A DNA stretch of 64,000 nucleotides from Actinomycetes bacterium (lineage in GTDB: Bacteria; Actinomycetota; Actinomycetes; Nanopelagicales; Nanopelagicaceae): the NCBI GenBank assembly GCA_023252155.1, contig JAHEXJ010000004.1, positions 1 through 64,000 on the forward strand. Direction: 5' to 3'. The position numbers and the translations under genes are program-made. Each line of letters starts with the position of its first letter. The stretch's first letter is position 1. Of this stretch, positions 14,281-63,441 are shown in pieces. The notes beneath the pieces were generated by a model, which was given only the letters and a program-made list of their open reading frames with translations, had not been told where the DNA came from and searched no databases.

Positions 14281-15079
14281 GTGCTTCTCCTTCACCGTTC
14301 GCTGTGGTTGGTTTCTTTGGATCGAGTAGAAGTAGCCGAAGTCGATCAAGTTCCTCGGCAGGCATTCCGTGATGAACCAGATAGTTCGTTACATCCCCGT
14401 GGGATGAACGGATTTGCTTTAAAACGTTGAGAATTAACGACGGTTCACATGTGAGCATGGCCGCGTATTGCTGACGGTCTTGGCCATTGTTAACGGCACG
14501 CTCGGTGATTCCTTGGAAGAATTCCTCTGTAAGGAATAGAGATGTTGCCGCGAAATCAGCTGCAATGGTGTCATCTGGCACGCCAAGGCTTGCCAATAGA
14601 AGCGCGATAACGATTCCAGTGCGATCTTTACCAGCGGTGCAGTGCACGATCGCAGGAAGTGCGTCTGGCTGGGCAAGTTCTCGCAGAGCCGCGACAATCG
14701 CAACTCCCCGTTCTGCCACTACGAACTGATACACAGCGTCGAGTGAAGAGAGCGACTTACGATCTGTCGCTCTCCCTTCTGCAGGTACGTTGTACGTGAA
14801 GACAGGAATGGATACCAACCGCACATGGTTGTTTAGATTGTCCGGGGCATCAATTCGTTCATCTTCTTCGCGAAGATCAAGAGAAGTACTCAGATTGATA
14901 CTTTGGAAAATCTCACGACCGCTGTCATCGACGTTGTGAACGGCATCGCCTCGTAGGACGCGTCTCCAGGCAACTGATCGCCCATCCTTTGTGTTGTATC
15001 CGCCGATATCTCGGACGTTGTACGTTCCCTTGATCGGCAGCCTGCGCTGTTGCATGTCTAGTTCAGCTATGGGAGTCAT
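14273..15079 (-). CDS. Tyrosine/inositol-phosphate phosphatase, IphP (Tyr_phosphatase3) family
   Basis: 268 residues. The cysteine phosphatase loop HCTAGKDRTG is at 146-155 with nucleophile Cys147 and Arg153. The N-terminal NVRDIGGY segment and the GDAVHNV segment are typical of the IphP-like family. Known members remove phosphate from phosphotyrosine, phosphoinositides or inositol phosphates. There is no signal peptide, so it acts inside the cell. It overlaps the upstream solute-binding protein gene by an ATGA junction and the downstream phosphoesterase by 8 bases, so it is tightly built into the transport operon. With the two phosphodiesterases it could release inorganic phosphate from an imported ester such as glycerophosphoinositol (inference). 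Confidence 0.87.
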   Translation of the reverse strand: MTPIAELDMQQRRLPIKGTYNVRDIGGYNTKDGRSVAWRRVLRGDAVHNVDDSGREIFQSINLSTSLDLREEDERIDAPDNLNNHVRLVSIPVFTYNVPAEGRATDRKSLSSLDAVYQFVVAERGVAIVAALRELAQPDALPAIVHCTAGKDRTGIVIALLLASLGVPDDTIAADFAATSLFLTEEFFQGITERAVNNGQDRQQYAAMLTCEPSLILNVLKQIRSSHGDVTNYLVHHGMPAEELDRLRLLLLDPKKPTTANGEGEAHV

Positions 15080-16446
15080 TTCATGAGCCCTACTGCTTGG
15101 CTCTGTGCTGCATCCATCGTGGATTGAGGATCCGCGCCTTGGAAAGTGATTGATGTTGCAGCATTTACAAGGATTCCCGAAAGTGCTGCGTAGTTAGGAC
15201 CTGGGTATGCCTGCCACTGTTGAATTCGGCTGAGCTGATCCATGGCTGGGGCTAAGAACGGTTGAGCTGCAGCCCAGGTCTTTAGGTATTGCGGCAAGTT
15301 GACGATTGATGGTCGCAGTGGCGCATAACCGATGTTTTCTGTTACAGAAGTCATTGACTCCGCGCTCGTCAGATATTGGATGAGCATCCACGCAGCTTGT
15401 TGCTTGATTTTGTCCTTGGAGAGGATTACCAAACCTGAACCTGAGTTGGTCGGTACTGATATTGTGTGACCGAATCCGGGTTCATTGGCAACCATCATCT
15501 GGAAGTGGCCACCATTTGCTCTGATGAGACTTCCCTGCATTGCGCTTGTACTTAGGAACATTCCGAGTTTGCCGGCGCCCCAAGCTTGAATGGCCTGTCC
15601 GGTCGTGAGGTTATCAATAGCACCGCTATTACCAAGACTCTGTAGTGCCTTCATGGCAGTGATGAGCTGAGGATTGTTGAAGGTTGGTGCGGTTCGCTTC
15701 GGGTTCATTACAGTGCCAGAAGCCGAGAAGATCATGGATTGAAGGCACCAGTCGATTCCGCTGCTTGCTGCGCCGATGCAACCATCAACGATTCCAGTTG
15801 AGTTGTGTACCTTCTTTATTGCTTGCGCATAGCGGTTTACCTGGGGCCACGTGGTTGGTGGATTTGCTGGATCTAGACCGGCAGCTTTGAACAGGTCGGC
15901 GTTGTAAAAGAGCAAAGGAGTAGAAAGAGTCCAGGGGATTGCGTAGACATTGCCATCAATGACTCCGAGTTTTGTAATCGCTGGAGCATAAGGATTGGCT
16001 CCACCCCATTCAGCCGCAAGGCTTGTAGCGCCTACGACCTTAGTCATGTTGATGCCATTAAAGCTATGTACCAGGTTCAACATTTCGCCGAACGGAATTT
16101 GAACTACATCTGGCACCTGACCGGCGATCGCGTCCTGTTGTACTTGGCCAGAAATTGCGCCTTCAGCTGTGCTTGCTTCTGGTTCCAGAGTTACAGTGAT
16201 GTTTGGATGCGCTTTCTGAAAACCGGCGATAAATCCATTAAGTGTGGCTACGGCCTGTGCACCAAGGACTGGCAGGTATGAAGCAAGTTTGATTGATACT
16301 TTTGTATTGGCAGGCACGGCCGGAAAGGCAGCATCAGCTGTCTTCTTTTGTGCAGCCGCTGCCGTGGCAGTGTTTGCCAACCCTGCGACGAGCAATGCTG
16401 CCAAGACTGCAGCAACTGCGCGACTTAAACGACCTTTTTTGGTCAT
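15076..16446 (-). CDS. ABC importer extracellular solute-binding protein (copy 1)
   Basis: 456 residues of the family-1 (MalE/UgpB) fold. An N-terminal export signal is followed by an Ala-rich stretch. Characteristic segments are PDVVQIPFGEML, YAIPWTLSTPLLFYN and NLFKAAGLDP-like ADLFKAAGLDP. The position where actinobacterial binding proteins usually have the lipobox cysteine is Leu (LLVAGLAN), and there is no cysteine nearby, so it is predicted to be released or wall-bound rather than lipid-anchored. The start at 16446 has GGAGAAAAGG upstream; the longer frame to 16500 would run to the neighbouring stop. Its sequence is highly similar to the next gene upstream, a tandem duplicate. Confidence 0.9.
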   Translation of the reverse strand: MTKKGRLSRAVAAVLAALLVAGLANTATAAAAQKKTADAAFPAVPANTKVSIKLASYLPVLGAQAVATLNGFIAGFQKAHPNITVTLEPEASTAEGAISGQVQQDAIAGQVPDVVQIPFGEMLNLVHSFNGINMTKVVGATSLAAEWGGANPYAPAITKLGVIDGNVYAIPWTLSTPLLFYNADLFKAAGLDPANPPTTWPQVNRYAQAIKKVHNSTGIVDGCIGAASSGIDWCLQSMIFSASGTVMNPKRTAPTFNNPQLITAMKALQSLGNSGAIDNLTTGQAIQAWGAGKLGMFLSTSAMQGSLIRANGGHFQMMVANEPGFGHTISVPTNSGSGLVILSKDKIKQQAAWMLIQYLTSAESMTSVTENIGYAPLRPSIVNLPQYLKTWAAAQPFLAPAMDQLSRIQQWQAYPGPNYAALSGILVNAATSITFQGADPQSTMDAAQSQAVGLMK

Positions 16447-16499
16447 GTACCTTTTCTCCGTATTCGATAGTTGGGATTGTCGTAAAGGGCGTGTCTTCA

Positions 16500-17876
16500 T
16501 TACTTAATGAGCCCGGCTGCTAGACCTTGTGCTGCCACCATCGTGGTTTGCGGATCTGCGCCTTGGAAAGCGATTGAAGTTGCTGCATTTAGAAGAATCT
16601 GCTGCAAGTTCGCGTAGTTGGGACCCGGGTATGCCTGCCATTGACGGATGCGGCTTAGTTGGTCCATTGCCGGTGCTAAATATGGTTGCGCGGCTGCCCA
16701 TCCCTTTAGGTACTGCGGCAAATTGACGATGGATGGGCGAAGAGGTGCGTAACCGATGTTCTCAGTAATCGCGGTCATTGATTCGGCACTAGTTAAATAC
16801 TGCATTAACGCCCAAGCCGCCTGTTGCTTGATCTTGTTCGTGGAGAGCATTACTAAACCTGAGCCTGAGTTCGTTGGTACAGAGATCGTGTGGCCGAATC
16901 CGGGTTCATTTGCAACCATCATCTGGAAGTGGCCGCCATTTGCCCTGATGAGGCCGGCTTGTAAAGCACTTGAATTGAGCATCATTCCGAGTTTGCCCGC
17001 TCCCCATGCCTGGATGGCCTGCGCATTGGTTAGGTTCTCAATCGCCCCACTTGAACCAAGACTTTGTAGTGACTTCATTGCTGTGATGAGTTGTGGGTTA
17101 TCGAAGGTGGTTGCAGTTCGTTTGGCGTTCATGACAGTGCCCGAAGCGGAGAAGATCATTGATTGAAGGCACCAATCGCTTCCAGCAGCCGCGGCGCCTA
17201 CGCAGCCGTCAACGATTCCCGTCACACCCGGTAGTTTCTTGAGTGCGAGGGAGTAACGAGCGAGTTGAGGCCAAGTTGTAGGCGGCGTGGATGGGTCGAG
17301 GCCGGCAGCTTTGAATAGATCCGCGTTGTAAAACAAGAGCGGTGTTGAGAGTGTCCATGGAAGTGCATAGACGTTTCCATCAATTTCCCCGAGCTTGGTA
17401 ATCGCCGGAGCGTATGGATTGGCGCCGCCCCACTGTGCCGCGAGACTGGTTCCTCCGACTACCTTAGTTAGATTGACCCCATTGAAGTTGTGTACGAGGT
17501 TGAGCATTTCACCAAAAGGAATCTGGACGATATCTGGAGTTTGATTTGTTATTGCGTCCTGTTGCACTTGGCTGGAGATGGCGCCGGCGGCAGTAACCGT
17601 CTCAGGTTCAATTGAGATCGTGATATTCGGATGTAGTTTCTGGAAATCAGAAATCAGTTTATTGAGCATTCCAGTGGCCTGTGCACCGAATATAGGAAGG
17701 TATGAGGCTAGTTTTATCGAAACCTTCGTGCTATTTGGAACTGAAGGAAATGCTGGAGATGTTTTTGACTTCACTGAAGCATTGGCACTAATCATTGAGT
17801 TGCTTGCTAACCCGACTACTAAAAACACAGCTAGGACGGAGAGGATGAACCGTCCTGTCCCACTTTTCTTAAACAT
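16500..17876 (-). CDS. ABC importer extracellular solute-binding protein (copy 2)
   Basis: 458 residues, closely matching copy 1 over nearly the full length. Shared blocks include SIKLASYLP, QVQQDAI, PFGEMLNLVH, WGGANPYAPAITKLG and GYAPLRPSIVNLPQYL. The signal peptide (MFKKSGTGRFILSVLAVFLVVGLA) again has Leu in place of the lipobox cysteine. The copies differ mainly in the signal region and in scattered surface positions. Two binding proteins feeding one permease pair could widen the substrate range or allow different expression levels (inference). It follows the ATPase gene by 45 bases in the operon. Confidence 0.9.
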   Translation of the reverse strand: MFKKSGTGRFILSVLAVFLVVGLASNSMISANASVKSKTSPAFPSVPNSTKVSIKLASYLPIFGAQATGMLNKLISDFQKLHPNITISIEPETVTAAGAISSQVQQDAITNQTPDIVQIPFGEMLNLVHNFNGVNLTKVVGGTSLAAQWGGANPYAPAITKLGEIDGNVYALPWTLSTPLLFYNADLFKAAGLDPSTPPTTWPQLARYSLALKKLPGVTGIVDGCVGAAAAGSDWCLQSMIFSASGTVMNAKRTATTFDNPQLITAMKSLQSLGSSGAIENLTNAQAIQAWGAGKLGMMLNSSALQAGLIRANGGHFQMMVANEPGFGHTISVPTNSGSGLVMLSTNKIKQQAAWALMQYLTSAESMTAITENIGYAPLRPSIVNLPQYLKGWAAAQPYLAPAMDQLSRIRQWQAYPGPNYANLQQILLNAATSIAFQGADPQTTMVAAQGLAAGLIK

Positions 17877-19230: not shown

Positions 19231-19248
19231 ATACCCATAGGGGGATAT
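19231..19248 (+). promoter_or_regulatory. Candidate CsoR/CstR-family operator, first SQR operon
   Basis: ATACCCATAGGGGGATAT, an imperfect palindrome of the same form as the sites at 58959 and 61039. It ends one base before the SQR start codon and contains its AGGGGG ribosome site, so binding would block both transcription and ribosome access. Confidence 0.65.
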
Positions 19249-20520
19249 ATGAAAAAGCTACTTGTACTCGGCGGCGGTACGGCCGGCACCATGGTCGTCA
19301 ATAAACTGCATAAGAAACTTGATGCGAAAGAATGGTCCATTACCGTAGTTGATAAGGACAATGATCATATTTATCAACCAGGGCTGCTTTTATTGCCTTT
19401 TGGCGTATACCATCCGGAAGAGCTGGTCAAAAAGCGCGATCATTTCTTGCCAAGCGGCGTTGAATACATCCGGGCCGATATTGATCGAGTCAACCCTGAA
19501 TTAAATCAAGTCCTATTGATGGATGGTCGCGTGATTGCATATGACCAACTTGTTATAGCAAGCGGGACAACACCTCGACCCGACCAGACTCCGGGCATGG
19601 ATGATCCGGCGGTGTGGCGCAAGAGTATTTTCGATTTCTATACGCTTCCGGGTTCACTTGCGTTACGAGACGCACTAAAGAATTTCAAGGGCGGACGTAT
19701 TGTCGTGCACATTACGGAAATGCCAATTAAATGCCCTGTGGCGCCGTTGGAGTTCACCTTCCTTGCCGATGCTTACTTCACAGAACGAAAGATGCGAGAG
19801 AAAGTTGAATTCGTCTATGTCACTCCGCTCGAGGGTGCATTCACGAAACCGGTCTGCTCCAAGCACTTGGGGTGGATGCTGGACGAGCGTCACATCAAGT
19901 TGGAACCCGATTTTGTTGTGGAGCACATCGATCCGGAAACAAGAACTCTGGTTTCGATGGATGAACGTGAGATTCCCTTTGATCTGCTGGTGACAGTTCC
20001 AGTGAATATGGGAGCAGACTTCATTGCCCGTTCTGGTCTGGGCGATGACTTGAACTACGTTCCTGTAGATAAGGGAAATTTCCTCTCCAAGAAGTACCCC
20101 AACATATTTGCCTTAGGGGACGCTTCAGACATTCCGGCGTCAAAGGCCGGGTCAGTCGCGCACTTCGCCATCGACTTATTCGCCGAGAATTTCGTGGAAT
20201 ACGTCCACGGCCGCCCAATGACCCACAATTTCGACGGCCATGCCAACTGTTTTATTGAGTCCGGCAACGGAAAAGGTCTTCTCATCGACTTCAATTACAC
20301 GGTCGAGCCGCTTACAGGGATGTTCCCTCTCCCCATTGTCGGGCCATTCCCACTTCTTAAGGAGAGCCGCTTCAACCACATGGGCAAGCTGGCCTTCCGG
20401 TGGATCTATTGGAATTTACTGTTGAAAGGCCGCTGGATACCGATCCCAGCTCTTATGTCCATGAAAGGCAAAAAGAAAGTCGAAGAAAAGGAAGGGGTTG
20501 TCGCAAATGCCAGTCATTGA
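19249..20520 (+). CDS. Sulfide:quinone reductase-like flavoprotein (SQR family, copy 1)
   Basis: 423 residues. The FAD motif GGGTAGTMVVNKL begins at residue 8. Two SQR-type redox cysteines are visible, Cys162 in MPIKCPVAP and Cys334 in HANCFIE, and a further Cys203 lies in PVCSKHLG. IFALGDASDIP is the C-terminal FAD motif. A hydrophobic and basic C-terminus (FRWIYWNLLLKGRWIP) suits membrane attachment. The family oxidises sulfide to persulfide or polysulfide and passes electrons to quinone. The ATG at 19249 has AGGGGG upstream. The TusE-like and DsrE2-like genes overlap or follow directly, which suggests the persulfide product is handed to sulfur-carrier proteins (inference). It differs clearly from the second SQR at 59356. 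Confidence 0.85.
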   Translation: MKKLLVLGGGTAGTMVVNKLHKKLDAKEWSITVVDKDNDHIYQPGLLLLPFGVYHPEELVKKRDHFLPSGVEYIRADIDRVNPELNQVLLMDGRVIAYDQLVIASGTTPRPDQTPGMDDPAVWRKSIFDFYTLPGSLALRDALKNFKGGRIVVHITEMPIKCPVAPLEFTFLADAYFTERKMREKVEFVYVTPLEGAFTKPVCSKHLGWMLDERHIKLEPDFVVEHIDPETRTLVSMDEREIPFDLLVTVPVNMGADFIARSGLGDDLNYVPVDKGNFLSKKYPNIFALGDASDIPASKAGSVAHFAIDLFAENFVEYVHGRPMTHNFDGHANCFIESGNGKGLLIDFNYTVEPLTGMFPLPIVGPFPLLKESRFNHMGKLAFRWIYWNLLLKGRWIPIPALMSMKGKKKVEEKEGVVANASH

Positions 20521-20821
20521 GGTCGCCGGAAAGCAAGTGAATGTCAATGAAGAAGGCTTCTTGACCAAGTACGACGAGTGGAACGAAGAGATTGCCAAAG
20601 TATTGGCAAAGCAGATCGACATCGAACTCACCGATGCGCATTGGAAAATCATAAAATTCCTTCGCGAAGACTTCAAGACCGAAGGTGAGACCGCAACGTC
20701 TCGTCGAGTTCAAACGGTGGGCGGAGTTCCTGTGAAGGATCAGTTCGCTCTGTTTCCAAAGAAACCTGCAAAGAAGATGGCGTATATCGCTGGATTACCA
20801 AAACCAAAAGGTTGCGTGTGA
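20507..20821 (+). CDS. TusE/DsrC family sulfur-carrier protein
   Basis: 104 residues. The C-terminus AGLPKPKGCV carries the conserved penultimate cysteine (Cys103) on the family's mobile arm. The second cysteine of true DsrC, 11 positions earlier, is Ala here, so it resembles TusE or single-cysteine DsrC-like proteins. Other family segments are NEEGFLTKYDEWNEEIA and LTDAHWKIIKFLRE. Such proteins accept persulfide sulfur and pass it on. The ATG at 20507 overlaps the SQR stop by 14 bases, so translation is coupled. No dissimilatory sulfite reductase genes are present, so a role in sulfide-derived sulfur transfer beside SQR and DsrE2 is more likely (inference). Confidence 0.85.
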   Translation: MPVIEVAGKQVNVNEEGFLTKYDEWNEEIAKVLAKQIDIELTDAHWKIIKFLREDFKTEGETATSRRVQTVGGVPVKDQFALFPKKPAKKMAYIAGLPKPKGCV

Positions 20822-20832
20822 GGGAGAATGAA

Positions 20833-21351
20833 ATGACACCAGAAATAGTTCCCAACTTCGGATCAGAAAATACTGATCGCAAATTGGCCATCATCTGCTC
20901 GAAGGGCAATTTGGATATGGCCTACCCAGGATTAATTCTGGCCAATGCCGCATTGGGAGAAGGCGTCGAGACGTTGATCTTCTTCACTTTTTGGGGTTTT
21001 GACATGATTACAAAATCCCGCATGAATGATCTTCAATTTAGTCCGGCCGGAAATACGGCGATGCACTTGCCAGGTAGCGACATGCATATCCCGCAAGCAA
21101 TGATGCCCGCTCCAGGTATGACTGCCGTCGCCACGCGTATGTTGAAGAAATCAATCGCCGATCTTGACGTCCCCGAAGTGCCTGATTTCCTAGATCAAAT
21201 CGTTGCTGCGGGGGGACATCTATGGGCTTGCAGGATGTCAGCTGATATGAACAAACTGACAATGAATGAGTTGCGCGATGATGTCGAAGGGATCATCAGC
21301 GCCTCGGACTTCATTGAAATGACCGACGGAGCGCAGTTACTTTTCATATAA
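20833..21351 (+). CDS. DsrE2-like (DsrE/DsrF family) sulfurtransferase
   Basis: 172 residues. The protein begins with RKLAIICSKGNLDMAYPGLILANAALGEG and a hydrophobic FFTFWGFDMI strand, as in the DsrE2 group often encoded near TusA, rhodanese or DsrC. Cysteines in IICSKG and ACRMSAD are in the places expected for persulfide carriers. The start is at 20833 because AGGGAGA lies five bases upstream; the frame extends seven codons further upstream. It is the third gene of the SQR-TusE-DsrE2 set and probably relays sulfane sulfur between SQR and the TusE-like protein (inference). A stretch of about 65 bases without an evident terminator separates it from the exporter genes. Confidence 0.8.
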   Translation: MTPEIVPNFGSENTDRKLAIICSKGNLDMAYPGLILANAALGEGVETLIFFTFWGFDMITKSRMNDLQFSPAGNTAMHLPGSDMHIPQAMMPAPGMTAVATRMLKKSIADLDVPEVPDFLDQIVAAGGHLWACRMSADMNKLTMNELRDDVEGIISASDFIEMTDGAQLLFI

Positions 21352-58958: not shown

Positions 58959-58974
58959 ATACCCTAGGGGGTAT
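58959..58974 (+). promoter_or_regulatory. Candidate CsoR/CstR-family operator, thioredoxin gene
   Basis: ATACCCTAGGGGGTAT overlaps the first two bases of the thioredoxin start codon, directly after a TATGAT -10 box (58955-58960). A repressor here would block transcription in one direction and could also affect the divergent membrane-protein genes. Confidence 0.65.
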
Positions 58975-59332
58975 GTCCACACTCAAACTTACCTCTGACG
59001 AATTTGAAAAAGTTATCTCCAAAGACGGCATCGTGCTGGTCGATTTTTGGGCAGCCTGGTGCGGGCCGTGCCGAATGTTTGGTCCGATCTTTGAAAAGGC
59101 TTCAGAAGAATATCCTGAGATTGTCTTCGCCAAAGTTGATACAGAAGAAGAGCAGCAGCTCTCAGGCTCACTCGGAATCTCTTCAATTCCCACGCTCATG
59201 GCGTTTAGGGATGGAATATTGCTTTTCAATCAAGCTGGCGCTCTTCCCGCTTCGAGTCTCGAGCAATTAATAAAGGCGCTACAAGAGGTCAATATGGAAG
59301 AAGTTCGGACTAAAATCGAAGCAGAGAAGTAA
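58973..59332 (+). CDS. Thioredoxin
   Basis: 119 residues. The active site WCGPC carries Cys30 and Cys33, preceded by VLVDFWAAW, and the cis-Pro segment SSIPTLMAFRDG follows, so it is a full thioredoxin. The final 25 residues (LQEVNMEEVRTKIEAEK) form a helical tail. It reduces disulfides or persulfides in the cytoplasm. The CstR-type operator overlaps its start, and it lies 23 bases before the second SQR gene, so it probably serves sulfur metabolism there rather than general reduction. Confidence 0.93.
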   Translation: MSTLKLTSDEFEKVISKDGIVLVDFWAAWCGPCRMFGPIFEKASEEYPEIVFAKVDTEEEQQLSGSLGISSIPTLMAFRDGILLFNQAGALPASSLEQLIKALQEVNMEEVRTKIEAEK

Positions 59333-59355
59333 ATTGCCGTAAGGGGAGTTGTCTC

Positions 59356-60813
59356 ATGGCTCGAGTCGTTGTTCTAGGTGCAGGAATTTCCGGCCATACG
59401 GCGGCATTGCATTTGCGGCGTAGGTTGGCAAAAGAGCATGAAGTAGTTGTCGTTACTCCAAATTCCAAGTGGAATTGGATTCCGTCAAACATTTGGGTTG
59501 GCGTTGGGAAGATGACAACAGATCAAGTCACCTTTCCCCTGGCACCTATTTATGCCCGAAAGGGAATTGAATTTCATCAGGGCTTGGCAACTGCAATCCA
59601 TCCAGAAGGTGATTCGAGTATTCCACGTGGCTATGTTGAAATCACTTACACAGATCCACAGAAGTCAGGTACGTCCCGTAAAGTCGAGTACGACTACTTG
59701 ATAAATGCAACAGGCCCCAAATTGAATTTCGCGGCAACTCCGGGACTGGGTCCTGATGCAAATACCGTTTCGGTATGTACTCCCGGCCATGCTATTGAAG
59801 CGGCAAAGGCGTTCAAAGAGACCATCTCTAAGTTGAAGCAAGGCATTCCGCAGACCCTGGTTGTCGGAGTTGGTCACGGTACATGCACATGTGAAGGTGC
59901 GGCCTTTGAGTACGCCTTTAATGTTGAGCATGAGCTTCACCTTGCTGGTGTGCGAGACCTTGCGACGGTTATTTACTTAACAAATGAATATGAATTGGGC
60001 GATTTTGGCGTCGGAGGGATGACTTTCACTCAGAGCGGTTTTGCCACTAGTAGCAAGATTTGGACTGAATCGCTTTTTCGAGAGCGGGGGGTCCACGCCA
60101 TTCTGCAGGCACACGTGGAGAAGGTAGAACCTGGTCTCATTCATTACGAGCAACTCGACGGAATCAAGCGCACTTTGAGTTTCGATTTTGCGATGCTTCT
60201 GCCTCCGTTCCGCGGGGTTGATTTAAAAGCCTTCAATAAGGCCGGAGAAGATATCACTGCTGACATGTTTGCACCCAATGGTTTTATGAAAGTTGACGCC
60301 AACTATTCTGCAAAGTCTTTTGAAGAATGGAGAGCCGAAGATTGGCCGAGTACTTATCAATCCCCGCTATTTGGAAACGTTTTCGGAGTTGGAATTGCTT
60401 TTGCCCCACCTCACCCAATTTCTCGACCGCGAAAGACTGAGGCCGGGATTGTCATTTCTCCATCTCCTCCGCGTACAGGAATGCCTTCTGGCGTGATGGG
60501 CAAAACGGTCGCTCTCACAATTTGCGATCGAATTCAACATGGCAACTCGATAAAGGCTCATGTCGCGTCCATGGCCAATATGGGAGCGGCTTGTGTTGCT
60601 TCAGCAGGATCGGGAATGCGAACTGGTACCGCTGCGGCGATGACGATGTACCCGGTAGTTCCTGATTACCAACGATTCCCTGACACAGGCCGAAGCACAA
60701 AAGATACCTTCGGCGAAATCGGCTTAGCCGGTCATTGGATTAAATATTTGCTTCATGTCATGTTTATTTACAAAGCAAAAGCACGATTCGGTTGGTTCTT
60801 AATACCAGAATAA
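59356..60813 (+). CDS. Sulfide:quinone reductase-like flavoprotein (copy 2)
   Basis: 485 residues. The N-terminal FAD motif is VVVLGAGISGHTAALHL. SQR-type cysteines are seen at Cys141 (VSVCTPGHA), Cys177/Cys179 (GHGTCTCEGAAFEY) and Cys413 (GAACVASAG), the three sulfur-shuttle places of the family with an added cysteine beside the second. The C-terminus (WIKYLLHVMFIYKAKARFGW) is an amphipathic membrane anchor. It is expected to oxidise sulfide and send electrons to quinone. It differs in length and cysteine pattern from the copy at 19249. Confidence 0.86.
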   Translation: MARVVVLGAGISGHTAALHLRRRLAKEHEVVVVTPNSKWNWIPSNIWVGVGKMTTDQVTFPLAPIYARKGIEFHQGLATAIHPEGDSSIPRGYVEITYTDPQKSGTSRKVEYDYLINATGPKLNFAATPGLGPDANTVSVCTPGHAIEAAKAFKETISKLKQGIPQTLVVGVGHGTCTCEGAAFEYAFNVEHELHLAGVRDLATVIYLTNEYELGDFGVGGMTFTQSGFATSSKIWTESLFRERGVHAILQAHVEKVEPGLIHYEQLDGIKRTLSFDFAMLLPPFRGVDLKAFNKAGEDITADMFAPNGFMKVDANYSAKSFEEWRAEDWPSTYQSPLFGNVFGVGIAFAPPHPISRPRKTEAGIVISPSPPRTGMPSGVMGKTVALTICDRIQHGNSIKAHVASMANMGAACVASAGSGMRTGTAAAMTMYPVVPDYQRFPDTGRSTKDTFGEIGLAGHWIKYLLHVMFIYKAKARFGWFLIPE

Positions 60814-60848
60814 TTCACCCTGCATTTCGAAGGAGAAGAGGACTGAAC

Positions 60849-60995
60849 ATGGAGAACGCGGATGAAGTCATTGCAAGAGCGCTCCTCCCGACCCCAGAGA
60901 CCTTGCGGGGGAGAAAGAATCTCCTACTCCAATCCTGGAGGTTCATCGCAATCAATATTCGAATGGTGAAAATGATCTTCAAAGGTGATCACTAA
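60849..60995 (+). CDS. 48-residue basic protein between SQR and the CstR-like gene
   Basis: The ATG at 60849 follows an excellent ribosome site (GGAGAAGAGG). The first 17 residues are acidic (ENADEVIARALLPTPE) and the rest is basic and hydrophobic, with a WRFIAINIRMVKMIFKGDH helix. It has no cysteine and no recognised family. It may be a small membrane-associated partner of the SQR. The end is followed by the promoter of the repressor gene. Confidence 0.6.
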   Translation: MENADEVIARALLPTPETLRGRKNLLLQSWRFIAINIRMVKMIFKGDH

Positions 60996-61038
60996 TTACC
61001 GGGTGACTTCCGAATGACTGACAATCTAAGGTTTTGTT

Positions 61039-61054
61039 ATACCCCTAGGGGTAT
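61039..61054. promoter_or_regulatory. CsoR/CstR-family operator, perfect palindrome
   Basis: ATACCCCTAGGGGTAT is identical to its reverse complement over 16 bases. It lies 37 bases before the start codon of the CstR-like repressor, as expected for autoregulation. Confidence 0.75.
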
Positions 61055-61091
61055 GCTAAAGTATCCGAATAGTTCGACCGAGAGGCAAATT

Positions 61092-61379
61092 ATGGCGAAA
61101 AAAGAAGTCATTCACGTGCTGTCCGATCCTGTTCAACTTGAAGCGTTGGCAAAACGCCTAAAGCGAGCACATGGGCAGTTGGGCGCGGTCGTGCGCATGC
61201 TTGAGGAGGGGCGCACCTGCGAGGAGATTGTCACTCAAATGGCTGCCGTCGGAAAGGCGGTCAACACCGCGGCATTTACCTTGATTGCCGCAAACCTCCA
61301 GGAATGCATTGAAGACGCCGATGAAAATACCGCCGCGGTGACGCAAAAGTTGCAGAAGCTCTTTTTGAGCTTAGCCTAA
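61092..61379 (+). CDS. cstR: CsoR/CstR-family repressor, probable persulfide sensor
   Basis: 95 residues, an all-helical protein of the DUF156 family (LAKRLKRAHGQLGAVVRMLEEGRTCEEIVTQMAAV). The metal or thiol positions are Cys43, Asn68 and Cys72. Copper-sensing CsoR has Cys-His-Cys; here the His is Asn, matching the CstR pattern of two cysteines that form persulfide or polysulfide links. The start at 61092 follows GAGAGG. Adjacent rhodanese, CoA-disulfide reductase and SQR genes support persulfide sensing. The extended frame to 61014 would include its own operator. Confidence 0.85.
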   Translation: MAKKEVIHVLSDPVQLEALAKRLKRAHGQLGAVVRMLEEGRTCEEIVTQMAAVGKAVNTAAFTLIAANLQECIEDADENTAAVTQKLQKLFLSLA

Positions 61380-61399
61380 GGAAAAGGATATTGATAACC

Positions 61400-61798
61400 G
61401 TGAACAGAAGGAAACTTGCTGCCGTAGCAATTATCGCTACTGCGTTGGTGCTGGCTGGATGCTCTTCACATAAAGGTGCGATCACCAATATGAACTCAAA
61501 CGATTTTTCGAACAAGATCCAAGAGTCGGGCGTTGTTGTTCTCGACGTTCGCACACCTAGTGAATATGCCCAGGGCCATATAGCCAACGCGATTAATATC
61601 GACGTTGAAGCAGCAACGTTCAACTCAGAGATCGCGAAATTGGATAACACCAAGACATATGCGGTCTATTGCCACAGCGGTCGCAGGTCGGCCATTGCGA
61701 CGACCGCGATGGCCCGAGCGGGATTTGAACACATTTTCAATTTGCAAAATGGCTTAGCCGATTGGATGGCGCACGGCATGATGGTGGTGACCTCATAA
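61400..61798 (+). CDS. Rhodanese lipoprotein
   Basis: 132 residues from the GTG. The signal ends in a lipobox LVLAGC (Cys21 becomes lipid-linked). The rhodanese domain follows with LDVRTPSEYAQGHI and the active loop CHSGRRS, with catalytic Cys91. It transfers sulfane sulfur outside the cytoplasm, near the membrane. The AAGGAAAAGG upstream is closer to a TTG at 61391, three codons earlier, which is an alternative start. Its stop overlaps the next start by one base. Confidence 0.85.
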   Translation: MNRRKLAAVAIIATALVLAGCSSHKGAITNMNSNDFSNKIQESGVVVLDVRTPSEYAQGHIANAINIDVEAATFNSEIAKLDNTKTYAVYCHSGRRSAIATTAMARAGFEHIFNLQNGLADWMAHGMMVVTS

Positions 61799-63441
61799 TG
61801 AAGATTGTTATTGTCGGTGGCGTTGCCGGCGGAATGTCAGCAGCGACGCGACTTCGAAGGCTAGATGCAGATGCTGAAATTATCGTTCTTGAGAAGAGCG
61901 GCCACGTCTCCTATGCCAATTGTGGACTTCCCTATTACGTGGGTGGCGTCATTGAGGAAGAAGAGTCCCTTTTTCTACAAACTCCTGAGTCTTTGTACGC
62001 TCGATTCAGACTAGATGTCCGAGTGCTAACGGAAGCGACGAAGGTTAATCCAGGACAAAAGACGATCGAAGTCCGCGATATTGCGTCGGGGACAATGTCA
62101 GAGATTTCCTACGATAAATTGATATTGAGTCCGGGCGCTTCCCCCGTTGTTCCACCGATTTCAGGTATAGAACGGGCATTAACTCTACGCACAGTCGAAG
62201 ATGTCGAGAAGATTTTCGCTAGGGTCATCGGCAATCCACGCGAAGCGGTTGTGATCGGCGGCGGGTTCATCGGTGTCGAGGTTGCAGAAAATCTCGTGCA
62301 TAAAGGGATTTCAACATCCCTGGTTGAAGCCCTGCCACAAGTTCTCGCTCCCTTGGATCCAGAGATGGCTACGTTGGTCTCGGAGGAAATGGTGCGAAAG
62401 GGAGTGAATCTCTTTCTCGGCGATGCCGTTGAATCCATTACAGCGAATTCGGTTACATTGGCTAGTGGTGAGGTATTGCCAAGCGATCTTGTAATTCTTG
62501 CAATCGGAGTGAAACCCGATGTAGCCCTTGCTCGTGGTGCTGGTTTAAGGATTGGCGAACGCGGCGGTATTGAAGTGGATGAATTCAACCGTACAAGTGA
62601 TCCCGATATTTACGCAGTTGGTGATGCTGCCGAGAAGCGAGATTCCATGGATGGCAGCGCGACTTTGGTACCACTTGCCAACATTGCGAACCGACATGGG
62701 CGAGTGGTCGCTGATCACATAAATGGCCGCACGGTCCGTTCTGTTTCAACAATCGGCACCGCTATCGTAAAAGTCTTCGATCTAACGATCGCCACGACCG
62801 GGTGGAATGAGAAGCGGTTGTTGGCAAGCAAGCGCCCGCATTACGTGATTCACACCCACCCGTCCTCACATGCTGGCTATTACCCAGGCGCGAAATCTAT
62901 GGCTCTGAAGATGATTTTTGACAAGGCCACGGGTGAGATTTTGGGGGCTCAAGGAATCGGCACCGAGGGAGTCGACAAGCGAATCGATGTTATTGCAACT
63001 GCGATCCGTGGTGGGTTGACTGCACCAGAGCTTGCAGATCTCGAATTGGCGTATGCACCCCCATTCGGATCGGCTAAGGATCCCGTGAACATGTTGGGGT
63101 ACGTTGCTGAGAATTATTTGTCGGGTCTTTCGAAGACCGTTCAGTGGCATGAAATTGATGACTATCGCGAACGCGGCTACACCATTTTGGATGTGCGAAG
63201 CGCGGGCGAGTTTGCATTGGGAGCCATTCCGCATTCCGTCAATATCCCCATTGATGAATTGCGGGAGCGGATCGGAGAGGTTATCTGGCACGACCTTGTA
63301 GTCAATTGTCAGGTTGGAATTCGCGGGCATTCTGCATCACTGCTTCTCAATGAGCTGGGATTCAACGCATCCAATCTCGACGGCGGTTATCAAACTTGGC
63401 GTCACTCACCGGCACGAGTTTCAACGCTAGTGCATTCGTAA
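61798..63441 (+). CDS. CoA-disulfide reductase/rhodanese fusion (CoADR-RHD)
   Basis: 547 residues, the length of bacterial CoADR-RHD fusions. The N-terminal FAD motif is VIVGGVAGGMSAATRLRRL; the CoA-disulfide-active cysteine is Cys42 in SYANCGLPYY. A second FAD/NAD motif (AVVIGGGFIGVEVAENL) and DIYAVGDAAE follow. The C-terminal rhodanese domain starts near residue 455 with LDVRSAGEFALGAIP, and its active Cys504 lies in VNCQVGIRGHS. It reduces CoA disulfides or persulfides and moves sulfane sulfur. The gene starts at the last base of the lipoprotein stop. Confidence 0.93.
   Translation: MKIVIVGGVAGGMSAATRLRRLDADAEIIVLEKSGHVSYANCGLPYYVGGVIEEEESLFLQTPESLYARFRLDVRVLTEATKVNPGQKTIEVRDIASGTMSEISYDKLILSPGASPVVPPISGIERALTLRTVEDVEKIFARVIGNPREAVVIGGGFIGVEVAENLVHKGISTSLVEALPQVLAPLDPEMATLVSEEMVRKGVNLFLGDAVESITANSVTLASGEVLPSDLVILAIGVKPDVALARGAGLRIGERGGIEVDEFNRTSDPDIYAVGDAAEKRDSMDGSATLVPLANIANRHGRVVADHINGRTVRSVSTIGTAIVKVFDLTIATTGWNEKRLLASKRPHYVIHTHPSSHAGYYPGAKSMALKMIFDKATGEILGAQGIGTEGVDKRIDVIATAIRGGLTAPELADLELAYAPPFGSAKDPVNMLGYVAENYLSGLSKTVQWHEIDDYRERGYTILDVRSAGEFALGAIPHSVNIPIDELRERIGEVIWHDLVVNCQVGIRGHSASLLLNELGFNASNLDGGYQTWRHSPARVSTLVHS

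What the first reader, a model, noticed from the sequence alone, without database searches (positions are those of the whole stretch)
19249..21351. SQR coupled to TusE-like and DsrE2-like genes without sulfite reductase
The TusE/DsrC-like gene overlaps the SQR gene by 14 bases and the DsrE2-like gene follows. The protein has only the penultimate Cys (Cys103), and the second DsrC cysteine is Ala. There is no dsrAB nearby. This suggests a direct persulfide relay from SQR to a single-cysteine carrier, a setting different from both tRNA thiolation and dissimilatory sulfur metabolism.
Basis: inference. Interest (0 to 1): 0.55.

Follow-up and report, generated by a model that had tools for sequence, protein, structure and literature searches.

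The report
Sulfide-oxidation operon with dedicated sulfur carriers
This bacterium carries a conserved three-gene set that most likely oxidises toxic hydrogen sulfide and hands the sulfur to two small carrier proteins, one of which is usually labelled a transfer-RNA sulfur protein and here is probably something else.

Summary
The set is conserved: 28 of 396 sampled genomes of the phylum, and 77 of 80 further SQR loci, have the genes in this order. The TusE-like proteins form one clade apart from E. coli TusE and DsrC. MnmA is in 389 of 396 genomes, the DsrC/TusE family in 48, so tRNA thiolation does not explain it; no sulfite reductase was found in this 84%-complete genome. New here: a palindrome matching the published operator of a sulfane-sulfur-sensing CsoR-family repressor (ATACCn6GGTAT) sits on the sqr ribosome-binding site and at two promoters of a second sulfide cluster in the window, which encodes the only such repressor found in the genome; the motif is enriched upstream of sqr in relatives. 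Best reading: a sulfane-sulfur-induced sulfide-oxidation operon, like the cst operon, whose SQR sulfur is taken by a dedicated DsrE2/TusE-like carrier pair. Direct transfer, its order and the final acceptor are inferred, not shown.

The parts
19231..19246 (+). CstR/ScCsoR-type operator-like palindrome ATACCCATAGGGGGAT; its G run (19240-19244) is also the likely ribosome-binding site of sqr
   Evidence: 1 mismatch to published ATACCn6GGTAT; 2 mismatches to the perfect palindrome at 61039
19249..20520 (+). sqr: sulfide:quinone oxidoreductase, NF049943 (type III, selenoprotein subtype model) with Cys334 where relatives of family f26 have in-frame TGA; Cys162 and Cys334 conserved
   Evidence: 621 bits against cut-off 525; human SQOR structures best PDB match; Cys 81 of 81
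20507..20821 (+). TusE/DsrC-family single-Cys sulfur carrier (Cys103; Ala92)
   Evidence: PF04358 112.5 bits, TIGR03342 83.1 bits; tree
20833..21351 (+). DsrE2-like carrier (Cys133, Cys22)
   Evidence: PF13686 101 bits; NF047629 103 bits, below cut-off 210; predicted DsrE fold, pLDDT 87.3
58959..58974 (+). operator palindrome ATACCCTAGGGGGTAT overlapping the trx start codon
   Evidence: 0 mismatches to ATACCn6GGTAT
58973..59332 (+). thioredoxin
   Evidence: TIGR01068 over cut-off
59356..60813 (+). second SQR/flavocytochrome-like flavoprotein
   Evidence: Pyr_redox_2; 48.9 bits to NF049943, far below cut-off
61039..61054 (+). perfect operator palindrome ATACCCCTAGGGGTAT
61092..61379 (+). CstR-like repressor, only CsoR-family gene found in the genome; two Cys, no copper-ligand His
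   Evidence: PF02583; alignment
61400..61798 (+). rhodanese with lipoprotein-like N-terminus
   Evidence: PF00581; lipoprotein-like start by my reading
61798..63441 (+). CoA-disulfide/persulfide reductase-like protein with C-terminal rhodanese domain
   Evidence: PF07992, PF02852, PF00581; TIGR03385 462 bits, below cut-off 579

Best explanation
A sulfane-sulfur-induced sulfide-oxidation operon. When sulfide rises, per- or polysulfide modifies the two-cysteine CstR-like repressor encoded at 61092-61379; it leaves the palindrome on the sqr ribosome-binding site and the operon is expressed. SQR oxidises H2S at the Cys162/Cys334 pair, passes electrons to quinone, and releases sulfane sulfur. The DsrE2-like protein (Cys133) and the single-Cys TusE-like protein (Cys103) take that sulfur as protein persulfides, in the likely order DsrE2 then TusE (as DsrEFH to DsrC), and carry it to an acceptor not yet known (thioredoxin or CoA-persulfide reductase for return to H2S, or biosynthesis). 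Shown: the gene set, its conservation, the conserved cysteines, the operator motif. Inferred: regulation, sulfur transfer, its order, the acceptor.
For: Gene order in 28 of 396 genomes and 77 of 80 SQR loci. All 25 Cys-type SQRs over the NF049943 cut-off in the 396 genomes lie in the set. TusE-like clade 100/96 with 105 rows, all SQR-linked. SQR-TusE spacing -25 to +70 nt in the 46 loci without DUF1641 between. Cys: TusE 77/77, SQR 81/81 twice, DsrE2 102/105. Published operator pattern with at most 1 mismatch: 21 of 27506 positions within 350 nt upstream of sqr, 17 of 753103 elsewhere, controls 0 upstream; a cstR-type gene directly before sqr in L102 and within the held flank in 5 of 80 loci. 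Only one CsoR-family match in the own genome.
Against: The operator is present (at most 1 mismatch) in 21 of 80 and 4 of 27 loci only; 27 of 80 have an HTH-PocR regulator upstream instead, none has both (operator by the 4-mismatch palindrome), so CstR control is not general. CsoR copper sensors bind similar palindromes. In the window alone the loose published pattern reaches 3 matches in 3 of 100 shuffles. No sulfur transfer was measured. L160 has sqr without carriers; L041 lacks the DsrE2 cysteine.
Confidence: 0.6

Rival explanations
1. The TusE-like protein is the TusE of tRNA 2-thiouridine synthesis and its place beside sqr is incidental or supplies SQR sulfur to MnmA.
For: mnmA (C54) and tusA (C97, beside a cysteine-desulfurase-like gene) are in the genome; it is the only PF04358 member; literature tends to read single-Cys members as TusE (passage in PMC8190135).
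Against: MnmA in 389 of 396 genomes, PF04358 in 48; NF008562 TusE equivalog 58 bits against cut-off 191; apart from E. coli TusE in the tree; no tusBCD set found; G062 (listed as 100% complete) has the set and no TusA match.
Confidence: 0.12
2. The set salvages sulfide for biosynthesis: carriers deliver SQR sulfur to Fe-S, cofactor or tRNA assembly in an organism without sulfite reductase.
For: No PF01077 match in the own genome; carriers are encoded in the operon.
Against: Sulfide can be assimilated directly by cysteine synthases (established knowledge); the operator points to a sulfane-sulfur response; genome incomplete.
Confidence: 0.17
3. Carriers feed a Dsr or sHdr-type sulfur oxidation pathway encoded in the missing part of the genome.
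For: 16% of the genome is missing; DsrC family donates sulfur to DsrAB elsewhere.
Against: Second Cys absent in 77 of 77 and in the window; the 28 genomes have one PF04358 match each, the SQR-linked one. sHdr genes were not searched.
Confidence: 0.06
4. The TusE-like or DsrE2-like protein is a sulfur-dependent regulator rather than a carrier.
For: Members of the DsrC family without the carrier cysteines occur (L070-L072).
Against: Penultimate Cys is invariant (77/77) and Cys133 102/105; separate regulators accompany the operon in many loci.
Confidence: 0.05

Closest known systems
Staphylococcus aureus cst operon (cstR, cstA, cstB, sqr; passages in PMC5480029)
   Same: SQR with sulfurtransferase partners under a dithiol per/polysulfide repressor of the CsoR family
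   Different: Partners there are a multidomain sulfurtransferase and a persulfide dioxygenase; here a TusE/DsrC-family and a DsrE2-like protein; repressor gene 40 kb away here
Streptomyces coelicolor ScCsoR circuit (passages in PMC7533328)
   Same: Operator ATACCn6GGTAT and two-Cys sulfane-sulfur sensor in an actinomycete
   Different: Controls PDO, rhodanese and a sulfite transporter; SQR, TusE and DsrE2 are not among its four genes
E. coli TusABCD-E / MnmA relay
   Same: DsrE-fold protein handing persulfide to a single-Cys TusE
   Different: No tusBCD found; different clade; SQR rather than IscS as the linked sulfur source
Allochromatium vinosum DsrEFH-DsrC (passages in PMC3397948)
   Same: DsrE-family to DsrC-family persulfide transfer on the penultimate Cys
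   Different: Two-Cys DsrC and DsrAB there; one Cys and no sulfite reductase found here
Type III SQR, selenoprotein subtype (NF049943; named in a table of PMC13188914, passage)
   Same: Same family model, HxxU/HxxC site
   Different: Cys instead of Sec; Sec forms (7 of 32) sit in family f26 only, Cys forms (25 of 32) all with the carrier pair

Membership tests
NF049943 type III SQR (selenoprotein subtype model) | score over curated cut-off | tested here: met
   621.4 against 525
NF049943 type III SQR (selenoprotein subtype model) | selenocysteine (in-frame TGA) at HxxU | tested here: not met
   HANC334 in the window; TGA only in 7 f26 genomes among those over the cut-off
TusE/DsrC/DsvC family (PF04358, TIGR03342) | score over cut-off and penultimate Cys | tested here: met
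   112.5/24.9 and 83.1/53.5 bits; Cys103
TusE of tRNA thiolation | equivalog model NF008562 | tested here: not met
   58.4 against 191
TusE of tRNA thiolation | groups with E. coli TusE | tested here: not met
   SQR-linked rows on the other side of a branch with support 100/96; E. coli TusE groups with DsrC (few columns, long branches)
TusE of tRNA thiolation | partner genes tusBCD in the genome | tested here: inconclusive
   one PF02635 and one PF13686 match, but genome 83.8% complete
DsrC of dissimilatory sulfur metabolism | two C-terminal cysteines | tested here: not met
   Ala92
DsrC of dissimilatory sulfur metabolism | dsrAB in the genome | tested here: inconclusive
   no PF01077 match, genome incomplete
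DsrE2 sulfur carrier (NF047629) | score over equivalog cut-off | tested here: not met
   103.2 against 210; two relatives 98.7 and 105.7
DsrE/DsrF/DsrH superfamily | PF13686 and DsrE fold with conserved Cys | tested here: met
   101 bits; Foldseek E about 1e-10 to 2qs7 and 3pnx, 5.9e-4 to DsrEFH 2hy5_B; Cys133 102/105
CstR regulon | operator upstream of the operon | tested here: met
   1 mismatch to ATACCn6GGTAT
CstR regulon | dithiol repressor without copper His | tested here: met
   two Cys, Asn at the His place (ligand roles recalled)
CstR regulon | repressor binds and releases with persulfide | not testable with these tools
   needs protein
cst operon | CstA/CstB (persulfide dioxygenase) partners | not tested
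   no dioxygenase search was made

The most novel reading that the evidence does not exclude
A new kind of SQR pathway in which the enzyme's sulfur acceptor is a dedicated protein pair (DsrE2-like plus single-Cys TusE-like) instead of a low-molecular-weight thiol, with the whole clade of actinobacterial and chloroflexal 'TusE' being SQR carriers and not tRNA-thiolation proteins.
Probability: 0.35. Interest if true: 0.7.

Novelty: new variant of a known kind. Interest (0 to 1): 0.52.

Why it matters
It would give a function to a widespread carrier pair, correct the default TusE (tRNA) label in Actinomycetota and Chloroflexota, and open the question of what accepts SQR sulfur in bacteria whose operon carries no dioxygenase. 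Cultured hosts exist (Nocardioides, Intrasporangium, Terrabacter, Cellulosimicrobium), so it can be tested at once.

Tried and rejected
Single Cys as the special feature: rejected, it is the rule without DsrAB. TusA as a needed partner: 20 of 28 set genomes against 236 of 396 overall over the cut-off; difference not significant, p 0.23. Natural fusions SQR-TusE or TusE-DsrE2: none in 77. Sigma-70 promoter and terminator scan: nothing above shuffles. A common downstream acceptor gene in the 80 loci: none seen; the commonest neighbours are DUF1641 between sqr and tusE (31 of 77) and the HTH-PocR regulator (27 loci), then an ABC ATPase-like cluster (10) and a DUF302-like cluster (9), the last two named by my reading of the sequence. 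A first control motif for the operator (half-sites reversed, 4 mismatches allowed) gave 7 upstream and 16 other hits against 24 and 15; the stricter published pattern with two other controls was then used. In one search I counted the wrong column for the second Cys; one search has the right one. Distance correlations between the three proteins, r 0.51, 0.55, 0.77, are partly species tree. Papers: passages only of PMC3397948, PMC9405070, PMC13188914, PMC8190135, PMC10318464, PMC7533328, PMC5480029, PMC10892978, PMC10989961, PMC13137333, PMC11267869; none of the passages describes the set; the rest seen in search listings only.

Full report
The TusE-like protein has one cysteine, 103, and Ala92 at the place of the second DsrC cysteine. 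The SQR scores 621 bits in NF049943, a type III SQR model made for selenoproteins (cut-off 525), and its best solved relatives are SQOR structures. The third protein passes PF13686 but reaches only half of the DsrE2 equivalog cut-off.

Conservation. PF04358 is over its cut-off in 48 of 396 sampled genomes of the phylum. I fetched surroundings for the 28 of them that turned out to hold the set (27 by fetching, one is the window itself), and for 8 of the other 20 (families f26, f27, f28); the remaining 12 I assigned by family and score only. In the 28 the order is sqr-tusE-dsrE2: 25 with an SQR over the NF049943 cut-off, one cut by a contig end (L046), one with an in-frame stop (L038), one with only some 90 C-terminal residues (L044). 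Each of the 28 has exactly one PF04358 match. NF049943 is over its cut-off in 32 of 396: 25 Cys forms, all in the set, and 7 with in-frame TGA, all in family f26; where examined, the f26, f27 and f28 loci hold two-Cys DsrC (5 loci) or members without the carrier Cys (3 loci), and some lie beside an iron-sulfur protein that I read as DsrK-like. One f26 genome, G116, has two single-Cys members (Ser) that are not SQR-linked (L053, L054), so a single Cys alone does not mean SQR.

77 of 80 loci have the set; L097 and L157 end at the contig, L160 has no carriers. Hosts are mostly Actinomycetota, with Chloroflexota, a Trueperaceae and a Saprospiraceae MAG. DUF1641 lies between sqr and tusE in 31 of 77; in the other 46 the spacing is -25 to +70 nt.

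Cysteines: TusE penultimate Cys 77 of 77, second position Ala 60 or Ser 17; SQR Cys162 and Cys334 81 of 81, Cys203 4 of 81; DsrE2 Cys133 102 of 105 rows (two gaps, one Tyr), Cys22 81 of 105. A model of the DsrE2-like protein (pLDDT 87.3, 30 rows) has the DsrE fold, closest to 2qs7 and 3pnx, with DsrEFH chain B further down; Cys133 ends a strand before a helix.

Not TusE of tRNA thiolation. MnmA is found in 389 of 396 genomes against 48 for PF04358. The equivalog model for TusE is far from met. In a tree of 116 rows all 105 SQR-linked proteins fall on one side of a branch with support 100/96, while E. coli TusE falls with the DsrC types; the tree has few columns and the tool warns of long branches. 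TusA is in 20 of 28 set genomes and 236 of 396 overall (p 0.23), and G062, listed as complete, has the set without a TusA match. Own genome: tusA beside a cysteine-desulfurase-like gene, mnmA, one PF02635, one PF13686, no PF01077. A branch from this carrier to MnmA is not excluded.

Upstream of sqr lies ATACCCATAGGGGGAT (19231-19246). The same palindrome, perfect at 61039-61054 and in another form at 58959-58974, precedes the CstR-like gene and trx of a second sulfide cluster. With the window-derived palindrome three matches are found against 0.06 expected (circular, since one site gave the pattern); in the whole own genome it has 7 sites with at most 3 mismatches, against 2 for the reversed control. 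With the published ScCsoR pattern ATACCn6GGTAT (passage in PMC7533328) the window has three matches with at most one mismatch, 0.65 expected, reached in 3 of 100 shuffles. In relatives the published pattern is the cleaner test: 21 hits in 27,506 positions upstream of sqr against 17 in 753,103 others, 21 of 80 loci, two control patterns 0 upstream; in the 396-genome set 5 in 8,970 against 6 in 340,249, 4 of 27 loci. Shuffled upstreams gave 0.3 loci on average for the palindrome with four mismatches, against 23 observed. Close relatives (for example L093, L095, L097) are not independent. The CstR-like protein is the only CsoR-family member found in the genome; it and seven of the eight other proteins aligned have two cysteines and no histidine at the copper place, L051 has it (ligand roles recalled; E. 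faecalis CstR Cys31/Cys62 from a passage in PMC9405070). 27 of 80 loci have an HTH-PocR regulator upstream, none of them an operator, so two modes of control exist.

Mechanism. Best supported: SQR makes sulfane sulfur, the DsrE2-like and TusE-like proteins carry it, and the operon is switched on by sulfane sulfur. Shown are the parts and their conservation; the relay, its order and the acceptor are inference from DsrEFH-DsrC (PMC3397948) and TusBCD-TusE. I found no description of the set in the held library (passages of the four papers that hold sqr, tusE and dsrE read).

Noticed in passing
window 58973-63441: Second sulfide/persulfide cluster: thioredoxin, SQR-like flavoprotein, CstR-like repressor, rhodanese, CoA-disulfide-reductase-like protein with rhodanese domain, with two perfect operator matches.
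   Followed up: partly
L067, and G137, G020, G094, G060, G083, G202: Selenocysteine-type (in-frame TGA) SQRs only in family f26 among those over the NF049943 cut-off; Cys forms only with the carrier pair.
   Followed up: partly
L142:4174-5004 and 26 other loci: HTH_17-PocR regulator upstream of sqr, never together with the operator.
   Followed up: partly
L043:6941-7729 and 31 loci: DUF1641 gene inserted between sqr and tusE; function unknown.
   Followed up: no
L081:830-2271 (own contig C82): Regulator with rhodanese domain, DsrE protein and a DUF302-like protein in a row: another sulfur island (names from my reading except PF02635).
   Followed up: no
L053, L054 (G116): Two single-Cys (Ser) DsrC-family proteins not linked to sqr.
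   Followed up: no
L041:7900-9360: A second, human-like SQR with a perfect operator palindrome upstream (9575).
   Followed up: no
window 15076-17876: Two tandem, closely similar sugar-binding-protein genes beside a sugar ABC ATPase (by my reading).
   Followed up: no
L070, L071, L072: DsrC-family proteins that have lost the C-terminal cysteines, in genomes that hold a second family member.
   Followed up: no
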